Assembly (NCBI GenBank): GCA_900323505.1
Contig: OOIN01000001.1
Span: 1,426,001-1,490,000 of the forward strand
DNA length: 64,000 nucleotides
Reading direction: 5' to 3'
Source: Ustilago trichophora
Taxonomy: Eukaryota > Basidiomycota > Ustilaginomycetes > Ustilaginales > Ustilaginaceae
This document shows, in pieces, positions 21,483-53,914 of this stretch. Under the pieces are notes generated by a model, which saw nothing but the letters and a program-made list of their open reading frames with translations, had not been told where the DNA came from and made no database searches. Numbering within the stretch: the stretch's first letter is position 1; every line of letters begins with the position of its first letter. A program made the translations under genes and the position numbers.

Positions 21483-24400
21483 ATGGCTTCGTTCTTCGCA
21501 AAGGCTAGAGAACGAGCTGAAGCGGCTGCTCAGCAGCTGCAAGCGCATCACGCCGCCTCCTCGGCCAACAAGACCGGAGATGCCTCCGGCACAAGCGATG
21601 CCACCAACTCTGGCTCTGGCTTCACCTATACAGGCTCTGTTCCCCATCTCTTCCGACAGGGTCTCGCCTCCGTCGACCCTCGCTACGAATCCACTCGACA
21701 GTTCCACTTGCTCAGCCAGGCTGTCAAGGCTCTCAACATCGACCATGAGGCCGCCGGTCGAGAGGCCAAGGGTCTCGCCAAGGCCACTTTTGTCTGGGGT
21801 CAGCACCACCTCCCCGAAAAGCGCGACGACAGTGTCGGTGATGAGATGCTCGCAGATGTCACCGATCGTCTCGCGTATGTCTGGCACGAGATCGGTCAAC
21901 TCGAGGTGGCCCACAGCCAGCGATCCGAACAGGCCCGCAGCCGCCTCAAACGCTTCGAAAAGACCGAAATGGAGCTAGGTCAACGAAGGGCCAATCGCAA
22001 CAAACTCAAGAAGGAGCTCCACGCGCTCGTTCCTGAACGTGCCATGTCGGCTGGAAGCGCACGAGCTCAAGAAGCCGAAAGCCGGCTCCTGGATCTCATC
22101 AACGATGATCAAGCAGATGAAGAGTCGCTCAGCCGCACCAAGCGCGAGAGCGTCAAGGAAGGTTACGCCGCCATGTTCGACAGCCTCATCGAACTCGGAG
22201 AAAAGATGGCGCTCGTCGCTCGTTACGGCAAGCTCCTCACTACGCACATCCCGACCGAAAAGTCTCCATTCCCAGCCACAGTCAAGCCCCGTGGCGACAG
22301 CATCCCCCTCTGGGAGGGAGCGTCCAAGACGGCCGATGTCCGTGCAGCGCTGGCATCCGCCTTGTCTGCCTTCAAGCCCGACCTTTCTCTTCCCAGCTTG
22401 CCCGCGGATTCCGCATTCTCGTCTACCACCAGCCTCGGACGTAGCGACACAGTGTCGTACGGCGTCTCGCACAGAGCCGAACTGCAAGATGATCAAGTCA
22501 CCAAGGTAGTTCCCACCCCCATCGCTCCGGTTGCCGAGCCCCCCTCTCCTCGTCGAACGAGCATCTCTTCCGACCGAGGTGATCGTCTTCAGCCGGGAAG
22601 CGCAGCCTCCCAAGATAATAGCAGTGCTCAGAAGCTCAACCTCAGCCCCACCGCCTTGCCGGCTCCACTGCTTCCACCTCGCCCTCAGCGCAGCGCCTCG
22701 GCCACAACCACAGACACTCTGCGATCGCCCATCGCCGATCCGTTTGCTGACCCAGCCGCTGCAGGAGCCGCAGCAGGCAACACTACAGCGCACGGAGAGG
22801 AAGCTGCGGCAGGTCCCCCTGGTCCCACAGTCGCCGAGACTGGTGTAGTGCCAACTGGACCTGGCGGACCCAAGTCCGGTACACTCCGACCACGCAGGTC
22901 TTCGGCCAGCCAGCGATCTGCCTCCATCTCGGCGGGCGCTGTTGCCTACTTGGGACCCACGGGCACCTACAGCCATCAAGCTGCGCTCAAGGTATTTGGC
23001 GAAGCCGGCACCAACCTGATCCCCATGCAGAGTATCACTGGTGCCATCGACTTTGTCCGTCGTGGTACGGGAGGCAACGCCAAGATCGCCATCGTGCCTG
23101 TAGAGAACAGCACTTTCGGCCCTGTGCGCGACACACTCGACAACTTGCTAGGCATCAGCAACGGAGATCGCCATGCATTCAAGCCTTCTGATGGTGCCCA
23201 ACTGCACGTCGTAGGCGAAGCATGTCTGCCTGTAGACCATGCCTTGCTTTGCGGACCCAAGACCTACCATCACCTTTTGCACTTGCAGGGCGACTCTGAT
23301 CCCAACGCTCCCATCCGCGACGACACGCTCTCCAATATCACCAATGTCATCTCTCACGAGCAAGCACTGGGACAGTGCGCGCACTACCTCACACGATACT
23401 TGCCTCAGGCCAAGAAGAAGGCGGTCGAATCGACAGCTGCAGCCGCCGTCACTGCTTTGGAATTTGAAGCAGGCACTGCGCCTGGCATGCCATCCGCTTC
23501 CGTCAGTCTCGCGCACGAGTCGCTGGGCTTCTCGTCCAATTCCCTGGTGGCGGCGGTGGGAGCTGAGGCAGCGGCGACTGCTGTGGGCGTTCGCGTGCTT
23601 CGTTCCAAGATTCAAGACGTAAAGGACAACCGCACGCGCTTTCTGGTGCTGGCAAGCGAACCTCTACAGAGCTTGCTGGCTATGCATGCCCTGCCCGTGT
23701 CGCTGATGCGCCTGTACAGCCCATCTGCGCCCGCTGGTCTGACCGGGCGATCGTTGCTCAGTGTCAACGATGGGCTTGCTTCCGATCTTATCGCCGAAGC
23801 TGGCAGCCGCAGCGGTAAGCCAAGCGTACTGGACAGGCTGGTCGAGGAGCTGTGCAAGCTGGCAGATATCTCGATCCGCAAGGTGGACCGTCGACCAGCA
23901 TCGACAGTGGAGGCAATTGTGGCTAGCAGCGTCTGGAGGAGCAGTTATCTGATTGAGCTTGAGTACTCGGCTGTTTCTGCCAGCTCAGCTCAAGCCAAGA
24001 TCCGAGAGTTGGTCGCCAAGCTTTCGATCGGAAGCTCTGCAACTGGGACTGTGGGAGGCCTGGCACCCATCACTGATCTTGGCAGCTGGCTCGTCGACGG
24101 AGCGACACTGCGAGGAGAGGCGACGCAAGGCGCCACTGCTCAGGCAAGCTCGTTGCAGGCTCTTAGTGGTCACGGCGCAGCTTTGCAGATGCCAGCTCCA
24201 AGTTCGTCGACGTCGAGCCTGTCTCAGAACTCACCACTGTCGGAGAGGGAGCGTAAGGAAACGGAGGCCAGTCGGGAAGCAGCCGAGGTGCAGAGGCACG
24301 CGACCCAAGCTCGATTCAACCGCCAGCAGCAGCAGGTAGAGCTGTATGGCATTGAGGCCCAACCTTCGAGTTCTGCCGCCGGCCGAACGCAGCCGCTGAC

Positions 24401-24491
24401 CGGATTGCAGGAGAATGAAGCAGAACAGCGCTTGGATGAGGAGGAAGGATTGCCCGCGTATCAAGCGTTTGACCCGTCTTCTCGAAGCTAA
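21483..24491 (+). CDS. Fusion: eisosome Pil1/Lsp1-like BAR domain + prephenate dehydratase with ACT-like domain
   Basis: One uninterrupted 1002-residue frame with two unrelated modules. Residues about 45-260 resemble the eisosome BAR proteins Pil1/Lsp1: a helical region with LAYVWHEIGQLEVAHSQRSE and the hallmark-like FDSLIELGEKMALVARYGKLL, where Pil1-family proteins have a similar 'hSEKIALIAGYGK'. A Ser/Pro/Ala-rich linker spans about 260-480. Residues about 485-720 are a prephenate dehydratase: AYLGPTGTYSHQAALKVF, IVPVENSTFGPVRDTLDNLL, SHEQALGQCAHYL and the catalytic Thr-Arg-Phe motif in DNRTRFLVLA. This enzyme makes phenylpyruvate for phenylalanine. About 787-865 looks like a diverged ACT regulatory domain (ISIRKVDRRPAST, LGSWL). 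The tail is Gln/Ser-rich. No stop or splice signal separates the halves. A separate internal transcript is possible but not indicated. Confidence 0.82.
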   Translation: MASFFAKARERAEAAAQQLQAHHAASSANKTGDASGTSDATNSGSGFTYTGSVPHLFRQGLASVDPRYESTRQFHLLSQAVKALNIDHEAAGREAKGLAKATFVWGQHHLPEKRDDSVGDEMLADVTDRLAYVWHEIGQLEVAHSQRSEQARSRLKRFEKTEMELGQRRANRNKLKKELHALVPERAMSAGSARAQEAESRLLDLINDDQADEESLSRTKRESVKEGYAAMFDSLIELGEKMALVARYGKLLTTHIPTEKSPFPATVKPRGDSIPLWEGASKTADVRAALASALSAFKPDLSLPSLPADSAFSSTTSLGRSDTVSYGVSHRAELQDDQVTKVVPTPIAPVAEPPSPRRTSISSDRGDRLQPGSAASQDNSSAQKLNLSPTALPAPLLPPRPQRSASATTTDTLRSPIADPFADPAAAGAAAGNTTAHGEEAAAGPPGPTVAETGVVPTGPGGPKSGTLRPRRSSASQRSASISAGAVAYLGPTGTYSHQAALKVFGEAGTNLIPMQSITGAIDFVRRGTGGNAKIAIVPVENSTFGPVRDTLDNLLGISNGDRHAFKPSDGAQLHVVGEACLPVDHALLCGPKTYHHLLHLQGDSDPNAPIRDDTLSNITNVISHEQALGQCAHYLTRYLPQAKKKAVESTAAAAVTALEFEAGTAPGMPSASVSLAHESLGFSSNSLVAAVGAEAAATAVGVRVLRSKIQDVKDNRTRFLVLASEPLQSLLAMHALPVSLMRLYSPSAPAGLTGRSLLSVNDGLASDLIAEAGSRSGKPSVLDRLVEELCKLADISIRKVDRRPASTVEAIVASSVWRSSYLIELEYSAVSASSAQAKIRELVAKLSIGSSATGTVGGLAPITDLGSWLVDGATLRGEATQGATAQASSLQALSGHGAALQMPAPSSSTSSLSQNSPLSERERKETEASREAAEVQRHATQARFNRQQQQVELYGIEAQPSSSAAGRTQPLTGLQENEAEQRLDEEEGLPAYQAFDPSSRS

Positions 24492-49534: not shown

Positions 49535-52500
49535 TCACGCAAGGGCGTCTTTTGCGTCTTCTGGACTGACACCAACCGGCAAATAGTCTGCATCCTGGAG
49601 AGCCCAGCGAGGCCATTCGCGCTTAGAAAGCTGCTCCATCGCGCTGGTGCTCGAATGGACGTTCATTCGCGAAGCAGATTGGCCTTGCAAATACTCGACC
49701 ACCTCGTCCGACCAAACGCGCGAAGCGGCTCGCACTTCGCTGGGCAGCTTCGAAGGCAGCACAAGCACGTGTACTGCAGGCCGCGGAACCACTGTCGCGG
49801 CCGAAGCTACAGCCGAACGCAGCTTGACCTGCAGTTGCGCTGCCAGCTCCTCTGCCGCGCGGATGGCACACGCCAGCCTCGAGCGGTCGCCGCGTGCGTC
49901 TTTGCCGACCACGACGAAAAGATCCCGATCTCGTAGGTTGAGAATCGAGATCTTGTTCGATCGGGTGGGCAGCAACAAATCGTCTGCGCCGTAGTAGCCC
50001 TTTGTGCTCCAAGGAGCGAATTGAAGCTTCTGACCTTGCAGCTCGACGTCAAGAAGGCTCGAGTCGTCCGACACAGACAGCTCCTGGTGACGGTGGAACC
50101 AGGCATTGGCGTAGGCCTCGGTCTTGTCAAAGACATTCCAGAAGAGACCACCTTCGGCGCCTTCCTCGACCTCAGCAATATCCTGTGTGGAACGAGCACT
50201 GCTAGACCCTGACTTGGCCAGCGCCTGGGCATATCGCACCGCAGCAGCGCGAACAACAGTCGACGAACCGCGTCCGTGCCACACACCAAGCGTTGAGAGG
50301 ACCGAAAAGACAAAGCTGTCACCTGAACACAGGTTGGCGGTTCGAAGGTCGACCTGTTGGATCGCGAAGCGCTCTTCTGAGCTACGTGTAGAGGCAACAG
50401 CTCGACGGACGCGGTAGAGCGAAGTGGCTGCGGCGTCGAAGCGTTTTCGCGAGCCCTGGCGGCTGACAGCCCAGGTACCCGAGAGAGAGGCAATCAGGTC
50501 GCCGGACTCACATCCAGCAGGGATCACAGCGGGCTTGGTTGAGTATCGCTGCGACAATTCGGCCACCTTGCGGCCTTCGGGACATGATGTGGACAGCGGA
50601 CCGAGCTCAAAGGGATGCAGAGCAGAGCGTTGTCCTGTTCGCACCCAAAGCTTCGTCTCCACAAGACCAGCATCCGACTTGAAGCGCTTCACAATAGCAA
50701 GGGTCTCGTCGTCGTACAAGATCTGTTCGCGTCGGAGCTGTTCGCCACGCTGGAACGTCTGGTCACCCGAGAGCTCCACGGTCTCAACGAAGCCGTCGGC
50801 ATCGATGGAGAAAACCTCGACGGAGATCGTCTTAGAAGATAAAGAGTCCGTCGGTGCTCCAGACATGCTCGTAAACTTGCTGAGCGATGTGCGTGCATCG
50901 CGTACCATCGCGGTAGCGTTGGCATCCACATCACCGCTCTGGGTCTTGAGTTGCACGATCTCCGTTTGTGAGACTTTGGCAGCCGGTGGAGTGGCGATCT
51001 TCTGGGTCTTCTGCTCCTCGGCCGCCTGTCGGTCGAGCTCCTCGAGGTGACCTTTGAGCACGAGATCCGCCGCTTCAACAATGATGACGTGCTCCACCTT
51101 GTGAATGGCCTGCTCCAGCTGCTCCAGGTCGTAAGAGGGGAGGATGGGCACCTCGCGCACGATGATGGGACGGCCTCGGTCAACATCAGCGACCACTTCG
51201 TGCACCATACAGCCTGTCTTGTCGGTGAGTCCCTGCTGGTACGCTTCGAAGGCACGTGGAATGGCGTTGGCACCATCGAAGGCTTTGGGCAGCGCAGGAT
51301 GCAAATTGATGATCGGCACCGCTTTCGAAGGACGCGTTCCAATGGTTGGTGTGCTGGCAGGTAGGCTCGTCTTGTGGCCCAGTGCGTGAAGGAATGGCTC
51401 CGAGACGATGTGCATGAATCCTGCCAACACGATGAGGTCGGGGGGTGTGCCTGTGCCTTCAGGGTTTGGACCATCCAGAACGGCACGAGCAAGGACTCTG
51501 TCGTACTCCTCTCGTGTGCCTCCTGGGTTGCGGTTCTGCCACGTCTTGAGCGCGAGCACCTTGGTGGGGATGGGCGGGTTCGACTCGGCAGCCCTGGTGA
51601 GACCGTAGGCAGCTTTTCGGTTGGACAAGACGAAAGAGATCTGCGCGTTCTCGATCACGGGGGTACCAGGAGGAGGGTTGAGGAGGGTGGCATCGATCAA
51701 AGACTGCAAGTTGGAACCAGATCCGGATACGAGGACGTGAACGCGCTTGCCTGTAGTCCTGCGAGGCGGGTTGGTCGAGGCGGGCTTCGAATCCTTCTCC
51801 TGGACTTGCTGCGCGGGAACCTGGGTCGAGGCCGAGATCTTGGAAGCTGGTGTGCTCGTCGATGCAGTGGTGAGCTTAGCATCAGCGGTCGCAGCCTTGC
51901 GGACAGGGCCCTTGGCCCTCGCTTTGGTGAGGGAGGTCAGGACCTGGTCTGCATTCGAGGCTGCACCAGCAGAAGCAGTCGAGTCAGGAAGGACGATGCT
52001 CTCCTCCGTCTTGGCTCTACTCTCGGCAAAGCGCGCAAATGGGCTGGTGCTGGCACCCATGCCTGGGAGACGAACTGGTTCTGCTCGCGGCTCGGCCACC
52101 GTCTCCTTCCTCTTAGGTGACGACGATTGCCACGGGGTCGAGGCGGTCTCTTTGGTGGGCGAGCGAAGGGCGAGACCTGGGAGAGCATTGCCATACTTGG
52201 TGGGTGACCAAGCAGAACCACCTTTGCGGTCATCGAAGTTGGAACGGACGGGAGAGGCGTTGGTCTGAACAGCTGGGGGCCATCGGTCTCGAACAGCAGG
52301 ACTGGATGGGACGCTGCGACCGGTGGATGCCACCTGCATCGATTCGACCTCCTTTTGCGCAACGACATCGCGCATCTGGGCTTCTTTGATGCGCTGGCCG
52401 ACCATCTTCTTGGCGCTCAGGCGAGAGAGCGATGCGGTGGGAATGCGATCACCGGCGAGTTCACTTGCAGCAAAGCTCGTCGAGCGGCTCGAGGCCTGAG

Positions 52501-53914
52501 ATGCTGCAACGTCAGTCTGTTCCGCGGGTCGGCTCCATCCTTTGCCAAGACCCGTGTCGGGCTTCGACTGTGGCTGCACGGCAGCAACGGCAGATGGTGC
52601 GACCAAGTCCTCTGGCTTAAGCGGGCTGGTGGCAGCATCCTTTCGCTCCGGCGAGTGCGAGGACGAGTAGGAGTGAGACTGCGCATTGGGAATGGGCAAT
52701 GGTCGGGAGGATCGGAAGAGGTCGTCATTGCGTGTGCTGCTCACACCTTCGTCGAGAAGAGGGGACGCGCCAAGTCCACCTTTGACAGGAGACGCGGGTC
52801 GCTCCAGCCGAGGTGAGGATGTAACGCTTTCAGCACCCGTGAATCTATGAAACTTGGACGGGCTCGAAGCGCGAGGAATGGCGGGTGAAGTTGGCGCGCT
52901 GGTCTGGGTGGCATTCTGCTTCTCAATGAGTTCTAGATAGGCCTTCTTGGGAGAAGAGGGCGCTGGAGATCCAAGGGCGCCGGAAGAGCCGACGCTGTTT
53001 GATGGTCGGCCCAGCTCTGCAGAAGTGAAAGAATACTTGGCTGGACTGCTCGCCTTGCCGGGCGATGCTGGCGCTGGTGTTTCCTTGACGGGCGATGCTG
53101 GAGAGGCGCCTCCGGAACGACGATTGCCCGTGGCATCCGCTCGCTCTTCGAGAAAGCTGGCCAGGGAGCGTCCCGAGTTGGAAGCCAATCCAGGAAGAGG
53201 CACTCTTCGACTTTCATGGATCAGTTCGGCCTCAGGAGGCGCGCTCTTGCCATCTCCTGCCAATTTCCCGAGGCGTGGACCTGCTGCTCTGCCTCCCATG
53301 AAGTTGGCGAGCGAGACAGGCGAATCGCTGGAACCTTTTGGGCCAGCGGCTACGCCCGTGGGACCGTACTGGCCACCATACCGAGCGAGCAGCGAATTGG
53401 CTCTCTTGATTCCTGTGACCCCCGATGCCTTGGTCGGAGAGGAGCCGAGCAAGGGCGAGGCTGAGGGAGATTGCGATGCGTCAGGAGGCGCCATGGCAGC
53501 AGGAGTGTAGCTGTTTTCCAAGCCTGCCGACGGAGGACTTTCGAGCGATGGCGTCGCCAGAGGCGAGTTTGGGTTCGAGGCCGAGATGCCACGAATGCCA
53601 GACACAGAAAGGCGGTCTCTGCGCTGCTGACGTTCGAGTCGCTGCCTCTGGAATTCGAGTTCCAGCTCTGAGGCAGACGAAGTGGTGACGTCCGTGGTAG
53701 ATTGTGAGCCTCCTTGCGCAAGACGAGAGGACGCTGAAGACGAGTTACGTTGACGAACTTGGTCGACCCACGATGCGAGATTCTGTGTCGGCGCTTCCGA
53801 TGGGCTGGCGGCGTGAGAAGGAGATGATGATGATGATGGAGCCGTCGGAACGCCTTCGGCTTGTCCCGATTGTCTTGGGAACGGATGTGATGGTTGATGT
53901 TGGGAGAAAGACAT
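49535..53914 (-). CDS. Fusion: disordered N-terminus + GAR transformylase (Ade8/PurN) + gelsolin-like repeats
   Basis: One open frame of 1459 residues from the ATG at 53914 (MSFSQHQ). Residues 1 to about 690 are Ser/Pro/Ala-rich, with LASWVDQVRQRNSS near 40-55 and repeated SPxK-type sites. Residues about 720-960 are phosphoribosylglycinamide formyltransferase, the third step of purine synthesis: VHVLVSGSGSNLQSLIDA, PDLIVLAGFMHIVS, the catalytic Asn-His of INLHPALPKAFDG and the Asp of VADVDRGRPIIVREVP. Residues about 1025-1459 resemble gelsolin/villin repeats: ANLCSGDSFVFSVLSTLGVWHGRGSS and a terminal repeat with FAPWSTKGYYGADDLLLP. Ascomycete DUF4045 proteins pair a disordered N-terminus with gelsolin repeats; here the purine enzyme lies between. 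No stop or clear intron divides the modules. I considered separate transcripts, but nothing in the sequence supports them. Confidence 0.8.
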   Translation of the reverse strand: MSFSQHQPSHPFPRQSGQAEGVPTAPSSSSSPSHAASPSEAPTQNLASWVDQVRQRNSSSASSRLAQGGSQSTTDVTTSSASELELEFQRQRLERQQRRDRLSVSGIRGISASNPNSPLATPSLESPPSAGLENSYTPAAMAPPDASQSPSASPLLGSSPTKASGVTGIKRANSLLARYGGQYGPTGVAAGPKGSSDSPVSLANFMGGRAAGPRLGKLAGDGKSAPPEAELIHESRRVPLPGLASNSGRSLASFLEERADATGNRRSGGASPASPVKETPAPASPGKASSPAKYSFTSAELGRPSNSVGSSGALGSPAPSSPKKAYLELIEKQNATQTSAPTSPAIPRASSPSKFHRFTGAESVTSSPRLERPASPVKGGLGASPLLDEGVSSTRNDDLFRSSRPLPIPNAQSHSYSSSHSPERKDAATSPLKPEDLVAPSAVAAVQPQSKPDTGLGKGWSRPAEQTDVAASQASSRSTSFAASELAGDRIPTASLSRLSAKKMVGQRIKEAQMRDVVAQKEVESMQVASTGRSVPSSPAVRDRWPPAVQTNASPVRSNFDDRKGGSAWSPTKYGNALPGLALRSPTKETASTPWQSSSPKRKETVAEPRAEPVRLPGMGASTSPFARFAESRAKTEESIVLPDSTASAGAASNADQVLTSLTKARAKGPVRKAATADAKLTTASTSTPASKISASTQVPAQQVQEKDSKPASTNPPRRTTGKRVHVLVSGSGSNLQSLIDATLLNPPPGTPVIENAQISFVLSNRKAAYGLTRAAESNPPIPTKVLALKTWQNRNPGGTREEYDRVLARAVLDGPNPEGTGTPPDLIVLAGFMHIVSEPFLHALGHKTSLPASTPTIGTRPSKAVPIINLHPALPKAFDGANAIPRAFEAYQQGLTDKTGCMVHEVVADVDRGRPIIVREVPILPSYDLEQLEQAIHKVEHVIIVEAADLVLKGHLEELDRQAAEEQKTQKIATPPAAKVSQTEIVQLKTQSGDVDANATAMVRDARTSLSKFTSMSGAPTDSLSSKTISVEVFSIDADGFVETVELSGDQTFQRGEQLRREQILYDDETLAIVKRFKSDAGLVETKLWVRTGQRSALHPFELGPLSTSCPEGRKVAELSQRYSTKPAVIPAGCESGDLIASLSGTWAVSRQGSRKRFDAAATSLYRVRRAVASTRSSEERFAIQQVDLRTANLCSGDSFVFSVLSTLGVWHGRGSSTVVRAAAVRYAQALAKSGSSSARSTQDIAEVEEGAEGGLFWNVFDKTEAYANAWFHRHQELSVSDDSSLLDVELQGQKLQFAPWSTKGYYGADDLLLPTRSNKISILNLRDRDLFVVVGKDARGDRSRLACAIRAAEELAAQLQVKLRSAVASAATVVPRPAVHVLVLPSKLPSEVRAASRVWSDEVVEYLQGQSASRMNVHSSTSAMEQLSKREWPRWALQDADYLPVGVSPEDAKDALA

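What the first reader, a model, noticed from the sequence alone, without database searches (positions are those of the whole stretch)
49535..53914. GAR transformylase embedded between a disordered region and gelsolin-like repeats
One 1459-codon frame contains a purine enzyme with its catalytic Asn, His and Asp preserved, flanked by parts that elsewhere form a DUF4045/gelsolin-type actin-related protein. A purine enzyme built into an actin-associated scaffold would be a new architecture and a possible genetically encoded metabolon.
Basis: partly seen in the sequence, partly recalled or inferred. Interest (0 to 1): 0.8.

Follow-up and report, generated by a model that had tools for sequence, protein, structure and literature searches.

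The report
Purine enzyme inside a gelsolin-like protein
In smut fungi and their relatives, the enzyme for the third step of purine synthesis sits inside a long protein whose other parts look like an actin-binding gelsolin scaffold, which may tie nucleotide production to the cell skeleton.

The parts
49535..53914 (-). Whole coding frame, 1459 aa and stop (in-frame open upstream to 54022)
51755..53914 (-). N-terminal low-complexity region, probably disordered (48% Ser+Pro+Ala+Thr)
53132..53407 (-). Conserved scaffold block of ~90 residues, also present in three Agaricomycete proteins that lack PurN
51044..51745 (-). GAR transformylase (PurN/ADE8) domain, P0001 residues 760-993
51305..51307 (-). 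Catalytic Asn906 codon
   Evidence: catalytic role recalled from E. coli PurN
51299..51301 (-). Catalytic His908 codon
   Evidence: catalytic role recalled
51179..51181 (-). Catalytic Asp948 codon
   Evidence: catalytic role recalled
50795..51043 (-). Variable linker between PurN and the gelsolin part
49697..50839 (-). Three gelsolin-homology domains in the order of gelsolin G4-G6

Best explanation
This is the organism's GAR transformylase, built into a fungal gelsolin-family scaffold. Shown: one frame carries a low-complexity N region, a PurN domain with intact catalytic residues and a G4-G6-like gelsolin module; the arrangement recurs across Ustilaginomycotina; no second PurN was found. Inferred with high confidence: it formylates GAR with 10-formyl-tetrahydrofolate as the third step of purine synthesis, from one polypeptide. 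Inferred: the older gene was the scaffold, and ADE8 was inserted once between its disordered part and its gelsolin part. Inferred, least certain (about even odds): the gelsolin module still binds actin or an actin-linked structure such as the division site, so that the enzyme is held where the scaffold sits.
For: PurN identity and fold; catalytic motifs in 45 of 45 proteins scanned; gelsolin G4-G6 by profile and fold; open frame in both genome copies with two one-codon gaps only and coding-type evolution in every segment; no second PurN over cut-off in the genome, the other PF00551 loci being PurU-like and FMT-like; 36 of 42 retrieved PurN proteins carry the gelsolin profile; fused group on one side of a 100/99 branch; scaffold without PurN in three Agaricomycete proteins, matched on both sides of the insert.
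Against: No RNA, protein or localisation data. The window protein alone matches no gelsolin or DUF7904 model in Pfam. The Asp of the G5-like calcium site is kept in 11 of 30 rows only. P0024 ends after PurN and P0048 is a short 'partial' record inside the group. TIGR00639 is just below its cut-off (142.7 against 150.1) and for the C2 copy. The own-genome search does not handle introns. N-region homology rests mainly on one block; with composition correction the whole-region profile is not significant.
Confidence: 0.6

Rival explanations
1. Passenger fusion: the enzyme and the scaffold each do their own work on one polypeptide, and the link between them has no function. It was fixed once and is kept because both halves are needed.
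For: Both halves are under purifying selection (dN/dS 0.06 and 0.14) while the linkers are looser (0.24, 0.33). A single origin needs no repeated advantage.
Against: Little direct evidence either way. Retention of one frame across two classes fits a useful link, but also simple difficulty of undoing it.
Confidence: 0.3
2. Two products: one gene, but internal start, alternative transcripts or cleavage give a separate enzyme and a separate scaffold.
For: The linkers are the fastest-changing parts. Some fused proteins have a Met 26-42 residues before the PurN loop (P0012, P0015, P0024, P0029, P0033). P0024 ends after PurN.
Against: In the window protein the nearest Met is 111 residues upstream, and the distance runs from 26 to 340 in the other fused proteins that have one. 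Linkers are coding in frame in both copies.
Confidence: 0.07
3. Artefact: two neighbouring genes merged by a gene model or an assembly error.
For: Such merging may explain five Agaricomycete PurN records with kinase or transporter domains, which are scattered in the PurN tree; not checked in their DNA.
Against: The frame is uninterrupted in raw DNA on both C1 and C2, and the same order recurs in many separately sequenced species.
Confidence: 0.02

Closest known systems
Stand-alone fungal ADE8 / bacterial PurN (TIGR00639, PF00551)
   Same: Same domain, catalytic motifs and fold.
   Different: Stand-alone enzymes are short; none of the 120 short proteins listed carries the scaffold profiles. Here the enzyme lies inside a 1459-aa protein.
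Animal trifunctional GART (GARS-AIRS-GART)
   Same: GART as part of a larger protein (human entries are so named).
   Different: Its partners there are other purine enzymes; here the partner is a gelsolin scaffold, and GARS is a separate gene. The domain order of animal GART is recalled.
Gelsolin and villin, C-terminal half (G4-G6)
   Different: 18% identity in that alignment; no match to PF00626 in this protein alone; calcium-site Asp in the G5-like domain kept in 11 of 30 rows.
Unfused DUF7904/gelsolin proteins of Agaricomycetes (P0021, P0022, P0023)
   Same: Same N block and same gelsolin region.
   Different: No PurN domain (for P0021 and P0022; precomputed domains for P0023).
Aspergillus oryzae gelsolin-domain protein of Mamun et al. 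2020 (title seen in reference lists only)
   Same: A fungal protein with gelsolin domains, said in the title to regulate contractile actin ring assembly: a lead for what this scaffold may do.
   Different: Not compared: the paper is not held and its sequence was not in hand.
Mammalian purinosome
   Same: Purine enzymes associated with the cytoskeleton.
   Different: It follows microtubules and not actin filaments (passages of PMC10912719), and is an assembly, not a gene fusion with a scaffold.

Membership tests
GAR transformylase (PurN, TIGR00639) | Score over the curated cut-off of 150.1 bits | tested here: inconclusive
   142.7 bits; 150.3 in the genome search for the C1 copy, C2 copy below. 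The match is split in two stretches.
GAR transformylase (PurN, TIGR00639) | Catalytic Asn, His and Asp (roles recalled) | tested here: met
   Asn906, His908, Asp948
GAR transformylase (PurN, TIGR00639) | GART fold | tested here: met
   TM 0.82 by target length to human GART 4zyv
GAR transformylase (PurN, TIGR00639) | Formylation of GAR | not testable with these tools
   needs an assay or complementation
Formyltetrahydrofolate deformylase (PurU, TIGR00655) | Score over the cut-off of 285.95 bits | tested here: not met
   23.9 bits
Gelsolin/villin superfamily | Tandem gelsolin-homology domains by profile and fold | tested here: met
Gelsolin/villin superfamily | Pfam PF00626 match in the window protein itself | tested here: not met
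   No match at E<=1; relatives P0029, P0034 and P0035 score over the cut-off
Gelsolin/villin superfamily | Calcium-binding sites | tested here: inconclusive
   Asp of the G5-like site in 11 of 30 rows; human site numbering recalled; other sites not settled
Gelsolin/villin superfamily | Binding, capping or severing of actin | not testable with these tools
   needs biochemistry
DUF7904 (PF25480) | Score over the cut-off of 30 bits | tested here: not met
   No match in the window protein; P0029, P0031, P0045 and the unfused P0021 and P0022 are over it
DUF4045 | Pfam match | tested here: not met
   No match at E<=1, nor at E<=0.1 in eight relatives
Purinosome / metabolon | Co-localisation with other pathway enzymes and channelling | not testable with these tools
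   needs microscopy and flux data

The most novel reading that the evidence does not exclude
A whole fungal subphylum, Ustilaginomycotina, has made purine synthesis depend on an actin-linked scaffold: its only GAR transformylase is part of a gelsolin-type protein that holds the enzyme at actin structures such as the division site or the growing tip, so that purine supply and cytoskeletal remodelling are coupled in one gene.
Probability: 0.3. Interest if true: 0.85.

Novelty: new variant of a known kind. Interest (0 to 1): 0.62.

Why it matters
The GART fusion that I know of joins the enzyme to other purine enzymes (recalled); here the partner is a cytoskeletal-type scaffold. If the link is functional, an essential metabolic step is physically tied to an actin-related protein across a subphylum of fungi. 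It would be a clean natural system for asking whether enzyme tethering matters, testable by splitting one gene.

Tried and rejected
Rejected: a plus-strand reading (stops in the frame translated). Rejected: PurU or FMT identity. Rejected: DUF4045.

Open: whether this is the genome's only gelsolin-type gene. PF00626 gave five hits, none of them this gene; the C5 one is Sec23; the C8, C14, C13 and C42 ones were not checked. PF25480 gave no hit in the genome, but no control rang either. Whether the PurU and FMT copies that I did not scan (C1:679932) are alike was not checked.

Weak or failed: a profile of the whole N region found none of the three unfused proteins with default filters. With filters off and composition correction on they scored -1.1, -6.8 and -32.2, above the best shuffle (-45.4) but not significant; without the correction 108.3, 104.8 and 80.3 against at most 49.7 in 150 local shuffles and 43.9 in reversed controls. 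Of five blocks tested, block 0 is clear, block 1 marginal (1 of 150 shuffles as high), block 2 and 4 weak (1-3 of 150), block 3 gave nothing.

Literature, ten searches. No listing that I saw describes a fusion of GAR transformylase with a gelsolin protein; several lists were cut (12 of 46, 15 of 17, 12 of 111), and subscription papers and preprints are not held. I read passages only of PMC10023807, PMC5542705, PMC10969196, PMC7552465, PMC10879430, PMC10971303, PMC10794492, PMC8951962 and PMC10912719; the rest were seen as listings.

Full report
What is in the sequence. The plus strand of the interval has stops throughout the frame translated. The chance of so long an open run at this base composition is about 2e-20. 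The window lies at G000:C1:1426001-1490000 in a genome of 38.8 Mb in 45 contigs. The organism is probably Ustilago trichophora: the best database match, P0002, bears that name and its longest contig has 2,685,375 bases, the length of G000:C2. That is an inference from a name and a length.

The enzyme. Residues 760-993 of the translated frame (P0001) match GAR transformylase: PF00551 E 7.6e-29, TIGR00639 PurN E 9.7e-42, human GART E 3.7e-18. The PurN score is 142.7 bits against a cut-off of 150.1, in two stretches; in the genome search the C1 copy reaches 150.3 and the C2 copy stays below. Asn906, His908 and Asp948 are in place (their catalytic roles are recalled). The motifs were found in 45 of 45 proteins examined: the window's own, 37 other fused or truncated-fused ones, two short ones and five Agaricomycete ones. 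A model of residues 745-1495 (31 sequences, mean pLDDT 86.2) matches human GART with TM 0.82 by target length.

The N-terminal part. The first ~720 residues are 48% Ser, Pro, Ala or Thr, with 18% order-promoting residues, and are probably disordered; no disorder predictor was run. They hold a conserved block of about 90 residues (53132-53407). The same block occurs in three Agaricomycete proteins that have the gelsolin region but no PurN: 29.7, 28.9 and 17.4 bits, against a best of 3.6 in 150 shuffled controls. Four further blocks gave marginal or no support, and the profile of the whole region is significant only without composition correction. The C-terminal profile finds the same three proteins at 1.1e-86 to 1.6e-80. 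PurN is therefore flanked on both sides by parts of one scaffold that also exists without it, and the simplest account is an insertion into that scaffold.

One protein or two. The second copy of the gene, on C2, is also open over its whole length. The two proteins are identical at 1359 of 1459 aligned positions, with two one-codon gaps, while the 1-kb flanks hold 28 and 33 internal gaps of many sizes. dN/dS is 0.13 in the N region, 0.24 in the linker before PurN, 0.06 in PurN, 0.33 in the second linker and 0.14 in the gelsolin part. The linkers are looser, but coding. The Met nearest to the PurN loop lies 111 residues upstream here, and from 26 to 340 upstream in the other fused proteins that have one, so a conserved internal start is unlikely. 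No RNA or protein data were available.

A second ADE8. PF00551 finds three pairs of loci in the genome: this gene on C1 and C2; a pair at C1:679932 and C2:685414, of which the C2 copy was scanned and scores as PurU (305.7 bits, cut-off 285.95); and a pair on C31 and C45, best matched by FMT but below its cut-off (164.7 and 139.6 against 201.5). The PurN model puts no other locus over its cut-off. The PurT model's best score is 125 bits against 502. GARS is a separate gene on C1 and C2. The search is six-frame without introns, so a heavily split gene could be missed.

Spread and origin. Of 42 proteins found with the PurN part, 36 carry the gelsolin profile and 32 the N block; 22 of the 36 were among the 23 that trained the profiles, so their agreement is by construction. 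The six without the gelsolin profile are P0024 (Sporisorium graminicola, N block and PurN, ends after PurN) and five Agaricomycete records with kinase or transporter domains. Named fused records come from Ustilago, Sporisorium, Melanopsichium, Moesziomyces, Kalmanozyma, Pseudozyma, Thecaphora, Tilletia, Tilletiaria and Microstroma. Lineages were looked up for U. trichophora and Thecaphora frezii (Ustilaginomycetes) and for Tilletiaria anomala, Microstroma glucosiphilum, Tilletia indica and Ceraceosorus guamensis (Exobasidiomycetes), all Ustilaginomycotina; the other names were not looked up. One fused record bears the name of a plant, Cichorium endivia (P0020), presumably smut DNA in a plant assembly. 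The ~840-aa proteins P0032-P0036 may be Malassezia; that is a guess from size and abundance, no record names it. A search with the PurN domain alone found 6262 proteins and listed 120 short ones: none of these carries the scaffold profiles. The only listed name that I recognise as Ustilaginomycotina is Ceraceosorus guamensis (P0048, 'partial'); unnamed records cannot be placed. In a tree of 55 PurN domains, the fused group (28 rows: 26 fused and the short P0047 and P0048, put there by affinity) is one side of a 100/99 branch against 27 others (22 short, 5 with kinase or transporter domains), in 100% of 200 bootstrap trees. I gave that tree 26 of 37 fused proteins and 23 of 118 other short ones, one of which (P0124) was dropped for lack of a motif. 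The root is not fixed by the data, so one insertion is the simplest reading, not a proof.

How it most likely works. The enzyme step is well supported by sequence. That the gelsolin part still binds actin is inferred from fold only. Leads: gelsolin-GFP marks the F-actin ring at the appressorium pore in Magnaporthe (passages of PMC5542705); a gelsolin-domain protein of Aspergillus oryzae regulates the contractile actin ring according to its title in reference lists. Neither was compared with this scaffold. Mammalian purinosomes follow microtubules and not actin filaments (passages of PMC10912719), so an actin-linked purine enzyme would be unlike them. A passenger fusion without functional coupling is a serious rival.

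Novelty. The enzyme is already annotated in public records ('related to glycinamide ribonucleotide transformylase'). I found no description of the fusion in the ten literature searches named under Tried and rejected, in a library that lacks most subscription papers and all preprints. I rate it a new variant of a known kind: a known enzyme in an architecture that is old and conserved but, as far as I could see, undescribed.

Noticed in passing
window 21483-24491 (+): A second enzyme-plus-scaffold frame in the same window: 1002 aa with an eisosome Pil1 domain (PF13805, residues 25-300, E 5.3e-68) and a prephenate dehydratase domain (PF00800, residues 487-726, E 1.4e-46); PDB hits are Lsp1/Pil1 and prephenate dehydratase. 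Its spread in other species was not searched, and its C2 copy could not be fetched.
   Followed up: partly
G000:C1 and G000:C2: The genome seems to hold two diverged sets of chromosomes: paired loci on C1/C2, C31/C45, C5/C8, C14/C13, and dS about 0.23 between the two copies of this gene. A published U. trichophora strain has 20.7 Mb (passages of PMC8951962) against 38.8 Mb here. A hybrid or very divergent diploid is possible.
   Followed up: partly
L001 (G000:C2:685414-685953): A PurU-like formyltetrahydrofolate deformylase with an ACT domain is encoded in this fungus.
   Followed up: partly
L006 (G000:C45:972-1205), L003 (G000:C31): The FMT-like gene is open over 396 aa on C31, but the frame of its copy on C45 is shorter (290 aa) and lacks the first part.
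   Followed up: no
P0038, P0040, P0043, P0044, P0046: Five Agaricomycete PurN records carry kinase or transporter domains in the same protein; they are scattered in the PurN tree, so they are either merged gene models or repeated fusions.
   Followed up: partly
P0025 (Thecaphora frezii), P0039 (Tilletia horrida): Named 'Bifunctional purine biosynthetic protein ADE5,7' in the source although the listed domain is PF00551: probably misnamed.
   Followed up: no
P0020: A fused protein of smut type recorded under the plant Cichorium endivia: probably fungal DNA in a plant assembly.
   Followed up: no
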